From a virus, in the IMG/VR virus record IMGVR_UViG_3300028388_004387, positions 1 through 55,462 of that record: a stretch of 55,462 bases of DNA. The stretch is one strand, 5' to 3'. The position numbers and the translations under genes were made by a program. The stretch's first letter is position 1; the number at the start of each line of letters is the position of its first letter. Shown in pieces: positions 2,552 to 49,410 of the stretch. The notes beneath the pieces were generated by a model. That model was not told where the DNA came from and did not search any database. It saw only the letters and a list, made by a program, of their open reading frames with translations.

Positions 2552-2599
2552 GAAACGAAAAGAATGCAGAGCCATACAATATACCAAAAAGCAAAAAGA

Positions 2600-3157
2600 A
2601 TGCGAGAGAAGCTAAATCTCGCAGCGACAGCAGCAATCTTCGTTTTCCTTTTAACTGCGTTGCAAAGCATAGCTCAAAACAAGACTTTCATCTACAACGG
2701 ATATGTCAGCCACTTTAGCTTGGAGTACCAATGCCCGCTGCGCGTAACGTACAGAGTAGAGGCGAAGGAAGGAGATTGTGAGCGCGGCAGGTTTTATGCA
2801 GCAGAGGGAACGCACAAGCCAGACGCCTACTTCGGCACGGGATACGAGCGTGGGCACTGCGCTCCAGCAGCCAACTTCAAGCACGACTGTGAAATGATGG
2901 AGGAGAGCTTTAGCATGCACAACGTATTTCCACAAACACTGTTCACTAATCGCAGGAGCTGGAAATGGACAGAGGAATACGAGAGGAAGCTTGCAGAGCT
3001 CGAAGGGTGTGTGGTAGTACAAGTAGAGCTGTCATGCTTTGTGCAGTCGCAAGGCTTATGGGTGCCCACAATGCTAAGCAAAAAAGTCAGCCGGTGCTGG
3101 GAGCCGGAAATACTATTTGAATTTATTACTCCAAACCTAACATACGAAGCAAAATGA
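2600..3157 (+). CDS. secreted DNA/RNA non-specific endonuclease (beta-beta-alpha-Me type)
   Basis: The frame is open from an ATG at 2564, but the ATG at 2600 begins a good Sec signal peptide (M-R-E-K, a hydrophobic stretch, then S-I-A-Q), so I prefer it. The mature part carries the family signature Y-E-R-G-H-C-A-P-A-A-N-F with the catalytic His (about residue 86), the metal-binding Asn in H-N-V-F-P-Q (about 108), and the following W...E-E-Y-E-R-K-L-A block. These match the Serratia/EndoG nuclease family, which cuts DNA and RNA without sequence preference. The product should act in the periplasm or outside the cell. Its use to the phage is unknown: attack on competing phage DNA, nucleotide supply and superinfection exclusion are all possible. 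Confidence 0.8.
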   Translation: MREKLNLAATAAIFVFLLTALQSIAQNKTFIYNGYVSHFSLEYQCPLRVTYRVEAKEGDCERGRFYAAEGTHKPDAYFGTGYERGHCAPAANFKHDCEMMEESFSMHNVFPQTLFTNRRSWKWTEEYERKLAELEGCVVVQVELSCFVQSQGLWVPTMLSKKVSRCWEPEILFEFITPNLTYEAK

Positions 3158-36566: not shown

Positions 36567-36836
36567 ATGGACATAATGCAGCTGATTAAACTGGTGAATG
36601 ATTACGGCACACTGCCCGTCTTGGTGTTTGTGTGCTATATTTGTTATAAGATGTTCGTCAGCGAAAGAGCAAAAGCAGACAAGTGCGCAGAAAGAAGATT
36701 TGAGGACATCAAAGAACACACGGACGACACTAAGGCTTTACTGCAAACAACTCTTAAAGCTATCGGCGAAATGCAGCAAGCAAGCAAGCAGGTAGCTGAA
36801 GCGTGCAAAGAGATTAAAGACATTCTGACAAAATGA
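36567..36836 (+). CDS. small membrane protein with coiled coil (spanin/holin candidate)
   Basis: An 89-residue protein with one membrane helix (about 13-30: Y-G-T-L-P-V-L-V-F-V-C-Y-I-C-Y) and a periplasmic or cytoplasmic coiled coil from 35 to 88. This is the plan of inner-membrane spanins and of some small holins. Its end overlaps the cupin gene by 4 bases. Confidence 0.6.
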   Translation: MDIMQLIKLVNDYGTLPVLVFVCYICYKMFVSERAKADKCAERRFEDIKEHTDDTKALLQTTLKAIGEMQQASKQVAEACKEIKDILTK

Positions 36837-37201
36837 TTAGAGCGATTTTAAGTCACTTACGGAACGACTATGCTACAGAAATCACGTGGGAAGAAATGCT
36901 AAGCATTAGCAGAACAGAATGGACACAGGTAAGTGAAGGATGCAAGGGCATACGAGTAAGAATGCCCGCTCCAAAAATTATGAGCTTTATCATTAAAATG
37001 GAACCGGGCTCGCATATACCCAATCATTGGCACGAAAAAGTGAAAGAATATTTTACGCTGCTGGAAGGAGATTGCTTTAGCAATATTTACCGGGACATGG
37101 AGACAGGTACTGCATACAAAGTGCATCCAGGTGTAGAGCATAACTTTAGCACAGAAAACGGGTGCTTGCTGCAAATGACTGCGGTACGGGTAGGGAAATA
37201 G
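36833..37201 (+). CDS. small cupin-domain protein
   Basis: A 122-residue protein with the cupin metal motif: P-N-H-W-H (His65, His67), E72 in K-E-Y-F-T-L-L-E-G and His103 in H-P-G-V-E-H. It forms a single beta-barrel likely to bind a metal ion. Its reaction is unknown. Position between two small membrane proteins of the lysis region is odd and suggests a role in lysis timing or wall sugar modification, but this is guesswork. Confidence 0.7.
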   Translation: MIRAILSHLRNDYATEITWEEMLSISRTEWTQVSEGCKGIRVRMPAPKIMSFIIKMEPGSHIPNHWHEKVKEYFTLLEGDCFSNIYRDMETGTAYKVHPGVEHNFSTENGCLLQMTAVRVGK

Positions 37202-40567: not shown

Positions 40568-40805
40568 CTTCGAGCTTGACGGAGTTAAGTATGCAGCATT
40601 TCACGGAGAGTGTAGACTGGAGGATAGGGGCGGCAAGTGCTTTCTAATAGTAAAGGGAAGCGTAGGAGAGCTGGTGGTTGCTTTGAGCAATGTTGCAGAC
40701 ATGAAGTTTGGCAGCAATAAAACGTCAAAAGCAAACGTCTTAAACCTGTGCAGCACACAGGACAATCAAAACAATAAACCACAAAAAACCAATGACAACG
40801 ACTGA
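40491..40805 (+). CDS. hypothetical protein before queE
   Basis: About 104 residues from the ATG at 40491; ATGs at 40467 and 40479 are also in frame. W-K-L-W-T-V-V-L-K-D and I-V-K-G-S-V-G-E-L-V-V-A-L are beta-like, and the last 30 residues are Asn/Lys-rich. The stop overlaps the start of queE by 14 bases, so it is part of the modification operon. No family recognised. Confidence 0.5.
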   Translation: MSSLKRERAELLLSEWKLWTVVLKDSFELDGVKYAAFHGECRLEDRGGKCFLIVKGSVGELVVALSNVADMKFGSNKTSKANVLNLCSTQDNQNNKPQKTNDND

Positions 40806-41595
40806 AATTTTAGGAAAAGAAAAAGCACCTATCAGCGAGTATTTTTACAGCTTGCAAGGCGAGGGGAGGTACACAGGATACCCAGCATTTTTTGTTCGGT
40901 ACCGCGGGTGTAACCTACTGTGCGGAAGGGACATGAAAACAGATAGCGAGCACCCAGACGCTGAATGGGAGTGCGACACCATTGACGTATGGCGCAAGGG
41001 CAAGATGATGACGAACAAGGAGCTGGTAGACAAAATGAACGAGGAATTTCAGTTCATTGACAGGTTGTTTAACCAGGACGCGCACCTTATCCTAACAGGC
41101 GGAGAGCCGCTTTTGCACATGCGCAGGCTGGAGTGTTTCATAGAGTATGTAGACGGCTTATTGGCAGACGAATCGTTCCCACACTTTCACACGCCTTTCG
41201 TGGAAATAGAAACCAACGGCACAATCACTCCAACAGAGTATTTGCTTAGGCGTGTAAACCAGTGGAACGTCAGCGTCAAGCTGCATAACAGCGGCCAGCC
41301 TTTAGATATGCGAGTGATAGACGATGCCTTAGAAACATTTGCACAAGCGTCAAGGGTTGCAGGTTCAGTAGATTTAAAGCCCGTCATAACACATCCAAAC
41401 GACATTTTCCAGGTGCAAGAAATTGTTGAGAAATACGGCTGGAGCGAAAGCAATGTCGTTCTAATGCCAGGAGGCAGCACGCAGCAGCAGCTTGACGAGA
41501 ACAGCAAGTTGGTTGCAGAGCAGTGCAAGGCGTTTGGGTACAGGATGAGCAGCAGATTACAAGTTATAATCTGGAATGAAGTAACCGGAGTTTAA
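40792..41595 (+). CDS. queE: QueE, 7-carboxy-7-deazaguanine synthase
   Basis: 267 residues, radical SAM. Motifs: Y-S-L-Q-G-E-G-R-Y near residue 19, then the iron-sulfur cysteines C40, C44 and C61, where the last two are separated by 16 residues (a long insertion seen in many phage QueE proteins rather than C-x-x-C). The SAM-binding G-G-E-P-L-L is at 103-108 and E-T-N-G at 140-143. It turns 6-carboxytetrahydropterin into CDG, the third step of preQ0 synthesis. It opens the deazaguanine genes. Confidence 0.9.
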   Translation: MTTTEILGKEKAPISEYFYSLQGEGRYTGYPAFFVRYRGCNLLCGRDMKTDSEHPDAEWECDTIDVWRKGKMMTNKELVDKMNEEFQFIDRLFNQDAHLILTGGEPLLHMRRLECFIEYVDGLLADESFPHFHTPFVEIETNGTITPTEYLLRRVNQWNVSVKLHNSGQPLDMRVIDDALETFAQASRVAGSVDLKPVITHPNDIFQVQEIVEKYGWSESNVVLMPGGSTQQQLDENSKLVAEQCKAFGYRMSSRLQVIIWNEVTGV

Positions 41596-41641
41596 ATAGG
41601 AAAATCAAGTAGTAAACTTTATCTTAGCACAAACAGGAAAT

Positions 41642-42490
41642 ATGGATAAGACAAAATTAAGTTGGAACGACGTCGCCAGGATGGCTGACAACCTTAAAGC
41701 AGTGATTGCTCAAAAGGTACCTCGCCCTAAAGTGTACCCGGTACCGCGAGGAGGTATCTATGCTGCATTGCTGCTCGGGTTCGAAATAGTAGACAGCCCA
41801 GACAAAGCCAATGTCATAGTAGACGACTTGATTGATAGCGGCAGCACTAAAGCACAGCATGAAGTGCTTTACCCAGACAAACCTTTCTACGCTTTATTAA
41901 CAAAAGCACACGACGACCTATGGATAGAGTTTCCATGGGAGCGCAACCAGCGCAATCCGCACGAGAGCGTCACAGACAATGTATCGCGAATACTGCAATA
42001 CCTGGGAGAAGATGTAAGCAGAGAAGGGTTGCTTGAAACGCCAAAGCGATACATAAAAGCCATGGAGGAGTTCTTAAGCCCTCCGGAGTTCAACATGACA
42101 ACTTTCCAAGCAGACAGCCAGGACATGATAATTGTCGATAATATCACATTTGAAAGCATGTGTGAGCACCACTTGTTCCCTTTCCATGGAGTAGGCCATA
42201 TTGGATACATACCCACAGACAAGATGGTCGGCATAAGCAAGATTCCTCGCACGCTGGAGCTGTTTAGCAGACGACTGCAAAACCAAGAGCGGATAGGCTC
42301 TCAAGTTGCAGACCACCTAATGCACCACCTGCAACCAAAGGGCGTTATTGTCATTTTAGAGGCTGCTCATATGTGCATGTGCATGAGGGGAGTGAGGAAG
42401 CCTGGCGCAATGACTAAGACAAGCGCTTTGCGAGGCTTGTTTTGCACTGACAGCGATTTACGAAATGAGTTTTTACAGCTAATCAAATAA
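41642..42490 (+). CDS. folE: phosphoribosyltransferase-GTP cyclohydrolase I fusion
   Basis: 282 residues. The first 95 form a PRTase-like domain with the PRPP loop V-I-V-D-D-L-I-D-S-G-S-T (58-69) and P-R-G-G near 35-38. The rest is FolE: C174-E-H-H, F-H-G-V-G-H, and H243-M-C-M-C-M-R-G-V with the zinc Cys. FolE makes dihydroneopterin triphosphate from GTP, the first step towards preQ0. The PRTase part may salvage guanine to feed GTP, or may be regulatory. The order PRTase then FolE in one chain is unusual. Confidence 0.88.
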   Translation: MDKTKLSWNDVARMADNLKAVIAQKVPRPKVYPVPRGGIYAALLLGFEIVDSPDKANVIVDDLIDSGSTKAQHEVLYPDKPFYALLTKAHDDLWIEFPWERNQRNPHESVTDNVSRILQYLGEDVSREGLLETPKRYIKAMEEFLSPPEFNMTTFQADSQDMIIVDNITFESMCEHHLFPFHGVGHIGYIPTDKMVGISKIPRTLELFSRRLQNQERIGSQVADHLMHHLQPKGVIVILEAAHMCMCMRGVRKPGAMTKTSALRGLFCTDSDLRNEFLQLIK

Positions 42491-42492
42491 GC

Positions 42493-43044
42493 ATGGAAAA
42501 GATAGTAGAATGGGTGCCCGTACCCGGTTTTGATAAGTACGAGTTCAACAAGTACGACGGGCAAATCAGACAAAAGAAAAACGGCAAGGTGCTTGAAGCA
42601 AGCACAAAAGGATGGACTGTAAGGCTAAGAACCAGCGACGGTAGCCGTAAAACCGTTTCTCCGGCGCGTCTCGTGCGCGAAGGGGATTGGCCCTGGAAAA
42701 CTATCCCGGAAGGCATAAAAGCGCGAGAGAACGCAAAAGAGCCCAGCGAGAAGCCAAGTAAGAAGCAAACAAGGATTGAGCGTGACGGAGTAAGGGCGCG
42801 CAAAGCAAAAGGTCAAAAGCTTGTTCCGCGCAGCGCAGCTCCAGCCAAGCCCAAGTATGACGAGCGGACAAAGCGAAAGGTAAAGCTCAACCCTTTGCTT
42901 GCAAAAAAGATAAGAGGACTGCGCAAGGAGGGATGGTACTTAAGGGAAATCGCAGAAGAGTTTGGTGTGCATGTTAGCACGGTAAGCGAAATCTGCTCAA
43001 ATAAACTTTACAAAATCATTAAAACCACAAAACAAGATGGCTAA
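42493..43044 (+). CDS. NUMOD4-like plus helix-turn-helix protein without nuclease domain
   Basis: 183 residues. The first 40 resemble NUMOD4, the DNA-binding module of homing endonucleases (W-V-P-V-P-G-F-D-K-Y-E-F, then I-R-Q-K-K-N-G-K-V-L). Residues 70-130 are a basic linker. Residues 140-175 form a resolvase/HTH_7-type helix-turn-helix (L-R-E-I-A-E-E-F-G-V-H-V-S-T-V-S). No HNH or GIY-YIG catalytic motif is present. It may be a former homing endonuclease kept as a regulator. It lies inside the deazaguanine operon, 2 bases after folE. Confidence 0.6.
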   Translation: MEKIVEWVPVPGFDKYEFNKYDGQIRQKKNGKVLEASTKGWTVRLRTSDGSRKTVSPARLVREGDWPWKTIPEGIKARENAKEPSEKPSKKQTRIERDGVRARKAKGQKLVPRSAAPAKPKYDERTKRKVKLNPLLAKKIRGLRKEGWYLREIAEEFGVHVSTVSEICSNKLYKIIKTTKQDG

Positions 43045-43441
43045 AGCAGAAGGAATGAGCATCCCTTTTGAAGGGAAGGAAGCAATTATGAAAGACGTCC
43101 TTGAAACGTTTGAGTACGGAGGGGATATGTCGCAAATTATCAAAACTGAAACGCACGAGTTTAGCGCAGTATGCCCTTTCAGCGGCTTACCAGATATCGC
43201 TACGCTGCGCATTCATTATCGTCCAACCGCCAACATGTGCGTGGAGCTTAAAAGCTTGAAGTATTACACCATGTCTTACCGCAACGTAGGCCTCTACCAG
43301 GAGCATGTAACCAACGAAATTTTCAACGACATGCTGAAGTGCTTAGGCGTATCTCCTAAGGACCTGTATGTGTACACGAAGTACAATGTGCGCGGAGGCT
43401 TTTACACGGAATGTGAGCTTGGAAACAAGGAGCTGAAATGA
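43037..43441 (+). CDS. queF: QueF, preQ0 reductase
   Basis: 134 residues, the short single-domain (unimodular) type. Catalytic Cys46 in C-P-F-S-G-L-P-D with Asp53, and the substrate/NADPH motif E-L-K-S-L-K-Y-Y at 70-77, Y-R-N-V-G and H90 are all present. It reduces the nitrile of preQ0 to the amine of preQ1 with two NADPH. Its presence next to dpdA predicts preQ1 (or a later derivative) rather than preQ0 in phage DNA. It overlaps the previous gene by 8 bases and dpdA by 4. Confidence 0.9.
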   Translation: MAKAEGMSIPFEGKEAIMKDVLETFEYGGDMSQIIKTETHEFSAVCPFSGLPDIATLRIHYRPTANMCVELKSLKYYTMSYRNVGLYQEHVTNEIFNDMLKCLGVSPKDLYVYTKYNVRGGFYTECELGNKELK

Positions 43442-44169
43442 AATACTTTTTCAGCAGCCCTTCCGGGCTAAAGAAAATCCTGGAACCTGGGGGCGCTCGA
43501 AATTTCCTGCTGAGCTATGCAGTAGACGCAAAGCACTGTAAGAAATTTGATGATATCAGCGACAGCGTTATCATTGATTCGGGCGCCTTTACGGTTTGGA
43601 ACAGGGGCGAGGGGGACATAGATATAGAAGCCTATGCAGATTTTTGCCTTACGCTTCCACAGGATTGGACGTTCATAAACGTGGATGTGATTCCCGAAAC
43701 AGGCAGCACAGCAGCAGACATTGAGCGCTGCTGTGAGCGCGGATACGAGAATTACAAATACCTTAAAAGCAGGATACAAAATATCATGCCGGTGTACCAC
43801 TATGGCGACAACCAGAAGTGGCTAAAAAAGTTTATGGATGAGGCGGATTACATTGGCATAAGTCCAGCCAACGACACCCACGAAAATGTCAAGCGCCAAT
43901 TCCTAAAAGAGACCTATGCTATTTGCGGCACAGACGTAAAGACTCACGCGCTTGGATACAGTAGCTTGGTTGGGCTTAGCATGTTTCCATTTTATAGTGT
44001 AGACAGCATTTCGTACAAGCGAGTGAAAGTGCTTGTTGACGGGAGTGCAAAAGCGCTATTGGTTGCAGGGGATATGAGGTACCTCGGTATTAAGAGTATC
44101 CAGGAATATTTGTACATAGAAAAATACATGACAGAGTTATGGGAAAGCAGGGGAGTTACCTGGGATTAG
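43438..44169 (+). CDS. dpdA: DpdA-type DNA deazaguanine transglycosylase
   Basis: 243 residues, a TGT-barrel relative of tRNA-guanine transglycosylase. Visible motifs: I-I-D-S-G-A-F-T-V-W (Asp47), V-D-V-I-P-E-T-G (Asp83), M-P-V-Y-H-Y-G (His121), I-G-I-S-P, and the late S-M-F-P-F-Y-S-V-D-S-I-S (Asp189). No tRNA-TGT zinc Cys cluster is present, as expected for phage DpdA. It should exchange guanine in DNA for the 7-deazaguanine base made by the neighbouring enzymes. Confidence 0.85.
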   Translation: MKYFFSSPSGLKKILEPGGARNFLLSYAVDAKHCKKFDDISDSVIIDSGAFTVWNRGEGDIDIEAYADFCLTLPQDWTFINVDVIPETGSTAADIERCCERGYENYKYLKSRIQNIMPVYHYGDNQKWLKKFMDEADYIGISPANDTHENVKRQFLKETYAICGTDVKTHALGYSSLVGLSMFPFYSVDSISYKRVKVLVDGSAKALLVAGDMRYLGIKSIQEYLYIEKYMTELWESRGVTWD

Positions 44170-44618
44170 AAACTATCAATCTGAGCGAGGTGCAGCTAAG
44201 CGATAATTGGTTTATGCTGCCCAAGGATGCTGGGAAAATGTTCTTAGCTGCATACACATCAGAACCGGAGCTGTTTGACTTAAGGGTAGCTGAAATAGAC
44301 GGGGCATATTATGCTCTGGAAGGAGATGCTCTTTTTGCTACGCTGCTAAAGTACAAACAGTATGAAGCGCGCTGCCATGTTTACAAAGTAGACAGCCACG
44401 AAAAACTGGTAGAAATTAAAGCGATTAGACAAATCGCAAAGCCTTTTGTAAATTACGTTCAAATCGCTATTGACTTTAAAGAGGTCAGCGATAAGCTGGG
44501 CTTGAAAAAGAAGTACAGCAAAGGAGGTAAATTGTACGAGGATGTGTGCTTGCTTAGCGAGTACGATTGGGAAAAAATTTACCAGGAGCAAACAACGAAT
44601 CAAACTTCACTTTTTTAA
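44139..44618 (+). CDS. ParB/Srx-like protein in the deazaguanine operon
   Basis: 159 residues, overlapping dpdA by 31 bases. The centre (I-D-G-A-Y-Y-A-L-E-G-D-A-L-F-A-T-L-L) resembles the D-G-x-x-R-x-x-A motif of ParB/sulfiredoxin-fold proteins, the fold also found in DndB/DpdB proteins of DNA-modification islands. The match is only a pattern, with no Arg at the usual place, so function is unknown. Its position between dpdA and queC suggests a role in modification. Confidence 0.5.
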   Translation: MGKQGSYLGLETINLSEVQLSDNWFMLPKDAGKMFLAAYTSEPELFDLRVAEIDGAYYALEGDALFATLLKYKQYEARCHVYKVDSHEKLVEIKAIRQIAKPFVNYVQIAIDFKEVSDKLGLKKKYSKGGKLYEDVCLLSEYDWEKIYQEQTTNQTSLF

Positions 44619-44629
44619 AATCAAAGAAC

Positions 44630-45358
44630 ATGGAAAAACATGCGAAACAGAAAGGAGCTTTAGTGCTGCTAAGTGGCGGGCAAGATTCAGTCACTTGTCT
44701 GTACTATGCTTTAGCATATTACGACAAGGTAGCTGCGCTAAGTTTTGACTACGGTCAAAAGCACGCTAAGGAGCTGGAGTATGCGGAAAGCTTGTGCAGC
44801 GACTTACAGGTGCCCTTCAAGCTCATTTCTGTAAAAGGAGTATTTGGCGAAAGCGCACTAACCAACCACGAGCTTGATGTGGATGGGATGCACCAGGTGA
44901 ACGAAGGGCTGCCTGCTACATTTACAGCAGGAAGAAACATGACTTTTCTTTCTATTGCTTGTGGGCTTGCGCACAGCATGGGCATGCCTACAGTCATCAC
45001 AGGGATATGCCAAACAGACTTCAGCGGTTACCCAGACTGCCGAGACAGCTTTAGAGCAGGTATGGAAATTACTGCACAGCTTGCACTTGACAACCCTGAC
45101 ATGAGGATACTGGCGCCCTTAATGTACAGAACCAAAGCTCAAACATGGCAGCTGGCAGGCGACTTGACAAAGCGATTTAAGGAGCTTGGAAAAGAAGGGG
45201 AGTTGTGGGATGTTGTAGAAGTGGTTCGTACGCGCACGCTTACTGACTACAACGGAGACCTGACGCAAAACGAATGGGGCTTAGGCAAAGCCGACAACCC
45301 TGCCAGCAGGCTTCGCAAAAAAGGGTACGAGGAGGCGAAAGAGAAAGGGTGGGTGTAG
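44630..45358 (+). CDS. queC: QueC, preQ0 synthase, lacking the zinc-binding cysteines
   Basis: 242 residues from the ATG at 44630; the frame is open from 44567. ATP motif S-G-G-Q-D-S at 15-20, S-F-D-Y-G-Q-K-H, G-R-N-M, and T-G-I-C-Q-T-D-F-S-G-Y-P-D-C-R are normal. The usual zinc site (T-x-T-C-Y-x-G, then G-C-G-x-C-x-x-C-x-x-R) here reads T-L-T-D-Y-N-G and G-K-A-D-N-P-A-S-R-L-R, so Cys is replaced by Asp206, Lys220, Asn223 and Ser226. It converts CDG to preQ0 with ATP and ammonia. Confidence 0.88.
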   Translation: MEKHAKQKGALVLLSGGQDSVTCLYYALAYYDKVAALSFDYGQKHAKELEYAESLCSDLQVPFKLISVKGVFGESALTNHELDVDGMHQVNEGLPATFTAGRNMTFLSIACGLAHSMGMPTVITGICQTDFSGYPDCRDSFRAGMEITAQLALDNPDMRILAPLMYRTKAQTWQLAGDLTKRFKELGKEGELWDVVEVVRTRTLTDYNGDLTQNEWGLGKADNPASRLRKKGYEEAKEKGWV

Positions 45359-45405
45359 CAGCACCTACCAAGCATCATTAAGGTATAAACCAAAAGCAAC
45401 AGCAA

Positions 45406-45840
45406 ATGAAAACCAAAGCAATAAGATACCACGACATCTGTGCAGGGCATCGCGTACACAATCACGAATCAAAGTGTGCGCACTTGCATGGACACAACTA
45501 CCGTTTCCACTTTACGGTAGAGGCGTTCAACGAGGATGAGCCGCTTGACGAAATTGGGCGCGTGCTTGACTTTAGCGTTATCAAGTCAAAGCTTGCAATG
45601 TGGCTTGAGGAGAATTGGGACCACAAGTTCTTAATCTGGGAGAAAGACCCGCTCTCTCGCGTTTTAAAAGCAGCGGACCAGGATGGCGTGGTGATTGTGC
45701 CGTTTAACCCGACAGCGGAGAATATCGCCCGTCATTTCGTAGATGTGGTTGCTCCTGTGCAGCTTGCGGGAACGCGCTGCAAGTTAACGGGGTGCAAAAT
45801 TGAGGAGACTCGAAAATGCAGCGCCTACTATGGAGAATAA
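45406..45840 (+). CDS. queD: QueD, 6-carboxytetrahydropterin synthase
   Basis: 144 residues. Zinc His residues: H15 in A-G-H, H28 and H30 in H-L-H-G-H; catalytic Cys24 in E-S-K-C-A-H; D72-H73 in W-D-H-K-F-L; P-T-A-E-N-I-A at 102-108, and the late K-I-E-E-T. All family landmarks are present. It converts dihydroneopterin triphosphate to 6-carboxytetrahydropterin, the second step towards preQ0. Its end overlaps the replisome organiser start. Confidence 0.92.
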   Translation: MKTKAIRYHDICAGHRVHNHESKCAHLHGHNYRFHFTVEAFNEDEPLDEIGRVLDFSVIKSKLAMWLEENWDHKFLIWEKDPLSRVLKAADQDGVVIVPFNPTAENIARHFVDVVAPVQLAGTRCKLTGCKIEETRKCSAYYGE

Positions 45841-48699: not shown

Positions 48700-49410
48700 A
48701 TGGCTTGCGGGCACAGCACGATACCCAAAGCGTCCAACTACAAACACATAATCAAAAATAAGACAATACCTATTGAGAATGGTGTTGTCAAATGGAGCAT
48801 TTTGAACTTCAGCAGGGACATGGACCGCCTTGTTCAGCTAAGCATATTCCACGACGTGTTCCAGGAGTATGAGCGCAGGATGTGGCCTATACGTTTCCAG
48901 AAAACAGACAACCCAGATGAAGCGTATTTCAAAGTGGTGTTTGCAAACAAAGGGAAGTACCTTAATCACGAAGGCAGAGAGGTGAGCATACCCGTGCCTT
49001 TTGAGGAGGGCGTGCTTGCATACGCTTACGGCCCGTACGACAATTTTGAGTACCGCGGATGGGTGTTTGTCAATGACGACATTTTTTGGACAATGAAAGG
49101 GCAGTCGGAAGGCGGAATGAAAATACGCTTAACCTTAGACCACGAGCTTGGGCACGCAGTAAACCTCGACCATACAGATGAGGAGGCTGATTTAATGTAT
49201 TGGCAGTACGGAGAGCACCGCACCTGGACGCAAGACAGCCAAGCAGGAATTGACAGTATTTACATGAGGATAATGGTGCCTCTTTTAAACCACTTTGGAT
49301 ATGAGCAACGTTTCAGAAAGTACAAAGCCAAAGCGCAAGAAGCGCAAAAGTACCCGAAAGCCCTTGACTACATCTGTCGCAAAGCAAAACAGTTCTTTTC
49401 CAAGCTCTAA
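48700..49410 (+). CDS. matrixin-like zinc metalloprotease
   Basis: 236 residues. The zinc motif H148-E-L-G-H152-A-V-N-L-D-H158 is the full metzincin H-E-x-x-H-x-x-x-x-x-H, followed by D-L-M-Y with the Met-turn (Met166). The first half (W-S-I-L-N-F-S-R-D-M-D, then V-F-Q-E-Y-E-R-R-M-W-P-I) resembles the start of matrixin (M10A) catalytic domains. No signal or pro-peptide is visible. It may act on virion proteins or on host envelope proteins at lysis. Confidence 0.75.
   Translation: MACGHSTIPKASNYKHIIKNKTIPIENGVVKWSILNFSRDMDRLVQLSIFHDVFQEYERRMWPIRFQKTDNPDEAYFKVVFANKGKYLNHEGREVSIPVPFEEGVLAYAYGPYDNFEYRGWVFVNDDIFWTMKGQSEGGMKIRLTLDHELGHAVNLDHTDEEADLMYWQYGEHRTWTQDSQAGIDSIYMRIMVPLLNHFGYEQRFRKYKAKAQEAQKYPKALDYICRKAKQFFSKL

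What the first reader, a model, noticed from the sequence alone, without database searches (positions are those of the whole stretch)
40792..45840. Complete deazaguanine DNA-modification operon predicted to make preQ1 in phage DNA
FolE (in a fusion), QueD, QueE, QueC, QueF and a DpdA-type transglycosylase lie in one operon. This is the full route from GTP to preQ0, its reduction to preQ1, and exchange into DNA. Known phage systems use various 7-deazaguanines to block restriction enzymes; QueF beside dpdA predicts an amine-type base (dPreQ1 or a further derivative). Having every step encoded by the phage makes it independent of host queuosine synthesis.
Basis: partly seen in the sequence, partly recalled or inferred. 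Interest (0 to 1): 0.85.

Follow-up and report, generated by a model that had tools for sequence, protein, structure and literature searches.

The report
Phage operon writing preQ1 into DNA
A bacterial virus carries its own gene set for making the unusual base preQ1 and swapping it for guanine in its DNA, probably to escape restriction enzymes; this kind of system is known, but comparing its relatives reveals a small sequence mark in the swapping enzyme that goes hand in hand with the preQ1-making gene.

Summary
On the + strand, 40792-45840, lie QueE, a phosphoribosyltransferase-FolE fusion, a small HTH protein, QueF, DpdA, a hidden ParB-like protein, QueC and QueD, nearly end to end: a complete GTP to preQ0 to preQ1 to DNA route in a virus. 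The kind is known: Streptococcus phage Dp-1 has the same enzymes and measured dPreQ1, and Cellulophaga phage phiSM has nearly the same operon. Added here: (1) the unnoticed 159-aa gene after dpdA has the ParB fold and matches the bacterial DpdA-DpdB pairing. (2) QueC has lost all four zinc cysteines, as have about a third of the related phage QueCs examined. (3) In 125 complete related loci, a DpdA motif, S-P-x-N-D, at the apparent place of the TGT loop that responds to guanine or preQ1, occurs only with QueF (67 of 67); 56 of 58 DpdAs without it have no QueF. The link holds after correcting for shared descent (8 of 8 independent pairs, p about 0.008). The window has SPAND. This argues that QueF reduces free preQ0 before insertion, a question left open in 2019. 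Most likely product: dPreQ1. No chemistry was measured.

The parts
40792..41595 (+). QueE, 7-carboxy-7-deazaguanine synthase (radical SAM); lengthened cluster loop Cx3Cx16C
   Evidence: phrog_2076 E 4.5e-51; several QueE models at E 1e-9 to 1e-15 but below their cut-offs; loop compared across relatives
41642..41941 (+). Shortened xanthine-guanine phosphoribosyltransferase domain, residues 1-100 of the fusion: PRGG and VDDLIDSGST motifs, Lys88, WIEFPWE; the flexible loop/hood of the full enzyme is missing
   Evidence: Profile of 17 relatives hits solved XGPRTs at E 4e-10; alignment; NF006613 E 2.2e-6
41975..42490 (+). FolE, GTP cyclohydrolase I domain of the same protein
   Evidence: PF01227 E 3e-64; model of the fusion matches FolE structures, TM 0.8-0.9 on the target
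42493..43044 (+). 183-aa protein with NUMOD4-like N-terminus and HTH C-terminus; role unknown, possibly a regulator or remnant of a homing gene; a similar ORF lies in the L005 operon
   Evidence: HTH_23 E 5e-4, phrog_18472 and phrog_6086; L005 ORF at 4495
43037..43441 (+). QueF, NADPH-dependent preQ0 reductase, with Cys46, Asp53, E-LKSLKYYTMSYRN and Glu89
   Evidence: TIGR03139 100.7 bits, cut-off 86.9; aligned with B. subtilis QueF 4f8b E 4.7e-15; alignment A2
43438..44169 (+). DpdA, DNA guanine transglycosylase, 243 aa, with IIDSGAF (Asp47) and SVDS (Asp189)
   Evidence: phrog_887 E 2.6e-42; 27% identical to Dp-1 DpdA, E 6e-21; profile match to CAjan DpdA E 2e-14
43861..43875 (+). DpdA base-pocket motif S142-P-A-N-D146, at the position of the E. 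coli TGT loop GGLAVGE
44139..44618 (+). 159-aa ParB-like protein, putative DpdB-type partner of DpdA; start overlaps the dpdA end by 31 nt
   Evidence: profile of genes in the same slot finds it at E 5.9e-5 among 464 window ORFs; family profile hits solved ParB/Noc at E 1e-9; predicted fold matches ParB, Foldseek E 7e-5
44630..45358 (+). QueC, 7-cyano-7-deazaguanine synthase, with SGGQDS, YGQKHxxE, RN and YPDC motifs
   Evidence: PF06508 E 1.5e-54; TIGR00364 173.5 bits, cut-off 150.3; alignment A3
45245..45316 (+). Place of the QueC zinc motif; all four cysteines replaced (DYNGDLTQNEWGLGKADNPASRLR), the tyrosine that matches E. coli Tyr189 kept
   Evidence: motif definition from PMC13329287
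45406..45840 (+). QueD, 6-carboxytetrahydropterin synthase
   Evidence: phrog_2389 E 1.9e-48; PF01242 E 2e-24; TIGR03367 E 5e-20, below cut-off

Best explanation
This is a phage-encoded system that replaces some guanines of the phage's own DNA with preQ1 (dPreQ1). FolE, QueD, QueE and QueC turn GTP into preQ0. QueF then reduces the free base preQ0 to preQ1. DpdA cuts out guanine from DNA and puts preQ1 in its place, using a pocket (S-P-A-N-D) that has been re-tooled for preQ1 in this class of DpdA. The ParB-like protein encoded directly after dpdA is the likely nucleotide-driven DNA-binding partner, as DpdB is in bacteria. The short phosphoribosyltransferase fused to FolE may salvage or sense guanine, for example the guanine that DpdA releases. 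The modified DNA would resist restriction enzymes. Shown here: the genes, their conserved residues, the statistical DpdA-QueF link and the ParB fold. Inferred: every chemical step, the order of reduction and insertion, and protection.
For: All six enzymes are encoded in one run of genes. QueF passes the preQ1 synthase cut-off and keeps catalytic residues shared with Dp-1 QueF. DpdA is homologous to Dp-1 DpdA and to CAjan DpdA; per PMC6884629 Dp-1 DNA contains dPreQ1 (about 1.7% of G) and CAjan dpdA is needed for modification. In 125 complete loci SPxND DpdAs all have QueF (67 of 67) and 56 of 58 others do not; 8 independent pairs agree, 0 disagree, p about 0.008. Sister DpdAs switch together: Dp-1 (QueF, SPAND) and MS1 (no QueF, GGLV); the window clade (QueF, SPAND) and L096 (no QueF in its 51.9-kb record, GFGNS). 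The motif aligns with the TGT loop GGLAVGE, whose Leu231/Ala232 peptide flips between guanine and preQ1 (PMC3660597). ParB-like genes directly follow dpdA in 9 of 9 loci of the closest DpdAs.
Against: QueC has lost the zinc-binding cysteines called a hallmark of the family; no phage with a zinc-less QueC has been analysed chemically in the papers I could read. QueF is found with the ordinary GG-type DpdA in one viral clade (L051, L057, L061, L075) and in Mycobacterium phage Rinkes, so QueF can work without SPxND. Bacterial TGT uses GGLAVGE and still takes preQ1, so the motif is not the only way to bind preQ1. The match of the DpdA motif to the TGT loop rests on weak alignments (hhalign probability 6%, E 0.006).
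Confidence: 0.78

Rival explanations
1. DpdA inserts preQ0 and QueF then reduces it on the DNA (the order seen for archaeal QueF-L on tRNA). The end product would still be dPreQ1.
For: Left open by Hutinet 2019 (PMC6884629). QueF occurs with GG-type DpdAs in one clade and in Rinkes.
Against: The DpdA base loop changes together with presence of QueF. That is expected if DpdA meets preQ1, not if it always meets preQ0.
Confidence: 0.08
2. QueC without its zinc site stops at ADG or does not act, so the DNA carries dADG or another base, or preQ0 is taken from the host.
For: All four zinc cysteines are replaced, and ADG is the QueC intermediate (PMC13329287).
Against: Nearly every other motif needed in E. 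coli QueC is kept, including the tyrosine equivalent to Tyr189. Zinc-less QueCs recur in complete operons: 11 of 20 loci that hold all six genes, QueF included, have one. QueF needs preQ0.
Confidence: 0.06
3. The QueF protein is an amidinotransferase of the QueF-L type and the product is deoxyarchaeosine (dG+).
For: QueF and QueF-L are hard to tell apart by sequence (PMC6884629).
Against: Passes TIGR03139 (preQ1 synthase) and aligns with B. subtilis QueF through Cys, Asp and the NADPH motif. Dp-1 and HVTV-1, whose QueFs share the E-x-K-S-L-K motif, contain dPreQ1 and little or no dG+ (PMC6884629).
Confidence: 0.04
4. The final base is a derivative of dPreQ1, such as a methylated or formylated form (reported for other phages; from memory of a 2023 paper by Cui et al., not held in the library).
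For: phiSM and Pan1 have a YkgJ-like cysteine-cluster gene directly before dpdA, also found in about a dozen QueF loci.
Against: The window has no homologue of that gene and no formyltransferase. Most small window proteins have no known family, so an unknown enzyme cannot be excluded.
Confidence: 0.1
5. The genes serve tRNA queuosine: the transglycosylase acts on host tRNA.
For: TGT homologues normally act on tRNA; annotations call such genes queuine tRNA-ribosyltransferase.
Against: The protein belongs to phrog_887 with phage DpdAs, is 243 aa, and has no CxCxxC zinc motif; its homologue in CAjan is needed for DNA modification (PMC6884629); no QueA or QueG model matched in the operon.
Confidence: 0.02

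Closest known systems
Streptococcus phage Dp-1 (HQ268735) dPreQ1 system
   Same: FolE, QueD, QueE, QueC, QueF and DpdA in one cluster; DpdA with SPAND; dPreQ1 measured in its DNA (PMC6884629)
   Different: No ParB-like gene next to dpdA, FolE not fused to a PRTase, zinc site kept in QueC, carries QueT; DpdA 27% and QueF 34% identical
Cellulophaga phage phiSM and relatives (KC821616 and others)
   Same: Same order QueF - DpdA - ParB-like - QueC - QueD; DpdA 57% and QueF 55% identical
   Different: FolE not fused, QueC keeps the zinc site, an extra YkgJ-like gene before dpdA, QueE after QueD
Queuovirinae phages with PRTase-FolE fusion (Vibrio 1.207.B, VpKK5, Pseudomonas NP1)
   Same: Same PRTase-FolE fusion, 40-44% identical, in a preQ0 operon with DpdA
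   Different: No QueF; GG-type DpdA; some use Gat-QueC for archaeosine
Bacterial Dpd island (DpdA-DpdB-DpdC)
   Same: DpdA works with a ParB-like ATPase, DpdB (PMC12839542)
   Different: Uses preQ0 and DpdC to give dADG; the phage ParB-like protein is a short single domain; no restriction genes
Halovirus HVTV-1
   Same: preQ0 genes plus QueF; about 30% of G is dPreQ1 and its DNA resists all enzymes tested (PMC6884629)
   Different: No DpdA of this subfamily reported there; archaeal host

Membership tests
Phage 7-deazaguanine DNA modification (DpdA type) | DpdA homologue | tested here: met
   phrog_887 E 2.6e-42; homologous to CAjan and Dp-1 DpdA
Phage 7-deazaguanine DNA modification (DpdA type) | preQ0 genes FolE, QueD, QueE, QueC | tested here: met
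Phage 7-deazaguanine DNA modification (DpdA type) | modified base in virion DNA | not testable with these tools
   needs mass spectrometry; no isolate
dPreQ1 group (Dp-1 type) | QueF with catalytic Cys, Asp and NADPH motif, over the preQ1 synthase cut-off | tested here: met
dPreQ1 group (Dp-1 type) | DpdA specific for preQ1 | tested here: inconclusive
   SPAND motif linked to QueF across 125 loci; specificity itself not measured
Canonical QueC (PF06508 cluster 1) | SGGxDS, YxQxHxxE, VPxRN, YPDC motifs | tested here: met
   SGGQDS, YGQKHAKE, YPDC kept; VPxRN is TAGRN here, with R and N kept
Canonical QueC (PF06508 cluster 1) | C(x)8CxxCxxC zinc motif | tested here: not met
   all four Cys replaced. 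So it is filed as a QueC homologue that probably works like QueC, not as a canonical QueC
DpdB / ParB superfamily | ParB N-terminal fold | tested here: met
   family profile E 1e-9 to ParB; Foldseek E 7e-5. The window protein alone has no Pfam match
DpdB / ParB superfamily | ATPase or CTPase activity needed for DpdA | not testable with these tools
   biochemistry needed
Xanthine-guanine phosphoribosyltransferase | PRPP loop, PPi loop (RGG), purine Lys, WxxxPW | tested here: met
   invariant or nearly so in the fusion family
Xanthine-guanine phosphoribosyltransferase | flexible loop and hood of the full-length enzyme | tested here: not met
   segment between the RGG and PRPP loops is missing or very short in all 17 fusions

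The most novel reading that the evidence does not exclude
Phage DpdAs of this superfamily include a preQ1-dedicated class marked by S-P-x-N-D in the base loop, which arose or was exchanged several times together with QueF, so QueF acts on the free base before insertion. The motif then predicts which phages carry preQ1-type bases, including those that encode only DpdA and would take preQ1 from the host. Further, the short PRTase fused to FolE may recycle the guanine released by DpdA into GMP; that part is much less certain (about 0.25).
Probability: 0.6. Interest if true: 0.65.

Novelty: new member of a known kind. Interest (0 to 1): 0.48.

Why it matters
The operon itself adds one more phage to a known defence-evasion strategy. 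The wider value is the DpdA motif: it gives a sequence rule to tell preQ1-type from preQ0-type phages, speaks to whether reduction comes before or after insertion (left open in 2019), and names residues to swap in a simple test. The zinc-less QueCs and the PRTase-FolE fusions show that phage versions of this pathway differ from the textbook enzymes in ways I did not find described in the papers I could read.

Tried and rejected
Chance or mis-annotation: rejected by family scores. A strict reading that QueF always goes with SPxND: rejected; L051/L057/L061/L075 and Rinkes have QueF with a GG-type DpdA. QueF elsewhere in the contigs of loci counted as lacking it: checked in 41 records; every hit lay in a FolE frame. 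A first phylogenetic test had too few independent pairs (1 and 3), so 131 more loci were fetched and the test repeated. PRTase linked to DpdA rather than to preQ0 synthesis in general: weak (p 0.026, and 0.17 when short loci are left out). A methyl- or formyltransferase for a further derivative: none found. A scan for close relatives of the fusion found nothing. Promoters and terminators: no more than in shuffles. DpdA against PDB sequences by HMM: no TGT hit. The chemical follow-up paper on phage 7-deazaguanines (2023) is not held, so I could not check what was measured in phiSM.
Full report
What is there. The window is a virus record of 55,462 nt. From 40792 to 45840, on the + strand, lie eight genes with gaps from a 31-nt overlap to 47 nt: QueE, a PRTase-FolE fusion, a NUMOD/HTH protein, QueF, DpdA, a 159-aa protein, QueC and QueD. 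Family searches confirm each named enzyme with E-values from about 1e-20 to 1e-64. Terminase, RecT, a RecE-type exonuclease, NinG and SSB lie around it, so it is part of a tailed phage genome. I moved the QueC start to the ATG at 44630, from its alignment with relatives.

The product-deciding enzymes. QueF aligns with B. subtilis QueF through the catalytic Cys and Asp and the NADPH motif and passes the NCBI cut-off for preQ1 synthase. DpdA shares IIDSGAF and SVDS with the DpdAs compared; these align with the two catalytic-aspartate regions of TGT. It is related to Dp-1 DpdA (27%, E 6e-21) and to CAjan DpdA. From Hutinet et al. 2019 (PMC6884629): Dp-1 DNA contains dPreQ1 at about 1.7% of G, HVTV-1 DNA about 30%, CAjan DpdA is needed for modification, and it was left open whether QueF acts on the free base or on the DNA.

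A motif that goes with QueF. Where most DpdAs read GG(L/M)V, the window reads SPAND (residues 142-146). In the first set of loci, 23 of 24 SPxND DpdAs had QueF nearby and 46 of 50 GG DpdAs did not; among complete loci the counts were 18 of 18 and 40 of 41. I then fetched 131 further loci with two other DpdA profiles. One of their search patterns contains SPAND; none involves QueF. Among those with at least three preQ0 genes, 49 of 49 SPxND loci had QueF, and 11 of 12 others had none, the twelfth having a truncated DpdA. Pooled, 125 complete loci give 67 of 67 and 56 of 58. On a DpdA tree built without the motif columns, 8 independent pairs on supported branches all agree and none disagrees (two-sided sign test about 0.008; quick tree). 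Two natural switches are clear: Dp-1 and its nearest relative MS1, and the window clade and L096, whose 51.9-kb record has no QueF. Exceptions run one way only: QueF with GG-type DpdA in one viral clade and in Rinkes. S, P, N and D are invariant in the SPxND class, and apart from one column that is mostly Gln they are the only positions that separate it from the rest.

What the motif may mean. MAFFT and hhalign both place it on E. coli TGT AVGGLAVGE, though with weak scores. In Z. mobilis TGT the Leu231/Ala232 peptide of this loop flips when preQ1 replaces guanine, with Glu235 behind it (PMC3660597). So a DpdA that meets preQ1 may have exchanged this backbone switch for a fixed polar loop; that is inference. 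If QueF acted on DNA-bound preQ0, DpdA would always meet preQ0 and there would be no reason for its base loop to follow QueF. I therefore favour reduction first, insertion second.

The hidden partner. The 159-aa gene after dpdA has no match in Pfam or PHROGs. In phiSM, Mufasa8 and the nearest viral contigs the same slot holds a ParB-like gene. A profile of those genes picks this ORF out of 464 window ORFs at E 5.9e-5. The family profile matches solved ParB and Noc proteins at E 1e-9, and the predicted model, of moderate confidence (pLDDT 71), matches ParB. ParB directly follows DpdA in 9 of 9 of the closest loci and in fewer of the distant ones. In bacteria the ParB-like ATPase DpdB works with DpdA (PMC12839542), and a dpdB-like role was suggested for a mycobacteriophage (PMC6392294).

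QueC without zinc. All four cysteines of the C(x)8CxxCxxC motif are replaced, while the tyrosine within it and the other motifs remain (motifs from PMC13329287). Of 102 related QueCs, a set chosen by similarity to the window and therefore biased, 36 were scored as lacking the motif, one of them (L069) only because the sequence ends before it. At least two different replacement patterns occur in separate parts of the tree. The replacements are conserved, so this is not decay. Whether such enzymes make preQ0 is untested in what I could read; CAjan, HVTV-1, Dp-1 and phiSM keep the cysteines.

PRTase-FolE. The N-terminal 100 residues form a short XGPRT-like domain (E 4e-10 to solved XGPRTs) with the PRPP and PPi loops but without the flexible loop. 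The fusion occurs in 17 loci, all with DpdA, and related domains without a FolE part lie in three further preQ0 clusters, one of them cut by the contig or locus frame. Recycling of the guanine released by DpdA, or guanine sensing, would explain it; the evidence is association only.

Verdict. The system is a new member of the dPreQ1 kind seen in Dp-1, with the phiSM operon plan. The most useful result is the DpdA motif and what it implies about the order of steps.

Noticed in passing
L137, L139, L147, L148, L155, L159, L164-L167, L169-L175, L177 and others: 23 loci have an SPxND-type DpdA but no preQ0 gene and no QueF in the fetched stretch. They may use preQ1 from the host or be fragments.
   Followed up: partly
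window 44630-45358; L003, L011-L014, L016-L023, L040, L045, L052, L064-L066 and others: Phage QueCs that lost all zinc cysteines: type DYNGD..NEWGxG..NPA..LR and type [SA]YDGxYPP...HA..LRA.
   Followed up: partly
window 40792-41595; L014, L018, L021, L023, L049: QueE with a long insert between the second and third cluster cysteines (Cx3Cx16C here, Cx3Cx18C and Cx3Cx28C in relatives, Cx3Cx6C in phiSM) instead of Cx3Cx2C.
   Followed up: partly
L007:11338-11991 (phiSM gp53), L012:4014-4664 (Pan1) and about a dozen new loci: A YkgJ-like cysteine-cluster gene directly before dpdA in part of the QueF phages, absent from the window; candidate for further modification of dPreQ1.
   Followed up: partly
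window 48700-49410: Matrixin-type metalloprotease (PF00413 E 5.5e-17) in a phage genome near the terminase.
   Followed up: no
window 36833-37201 and 2564-3157: A cupin protein (PF07883) and a DNA/RNA non-specific endonuclease (PF01223).
   Followed up: no
L124:7328-8488 (HVTV-1 gp69): Hypothetical gene directly after folE; may be the missing transglycosylase of HVTV-1, judged by eye only.
   Followed up: no
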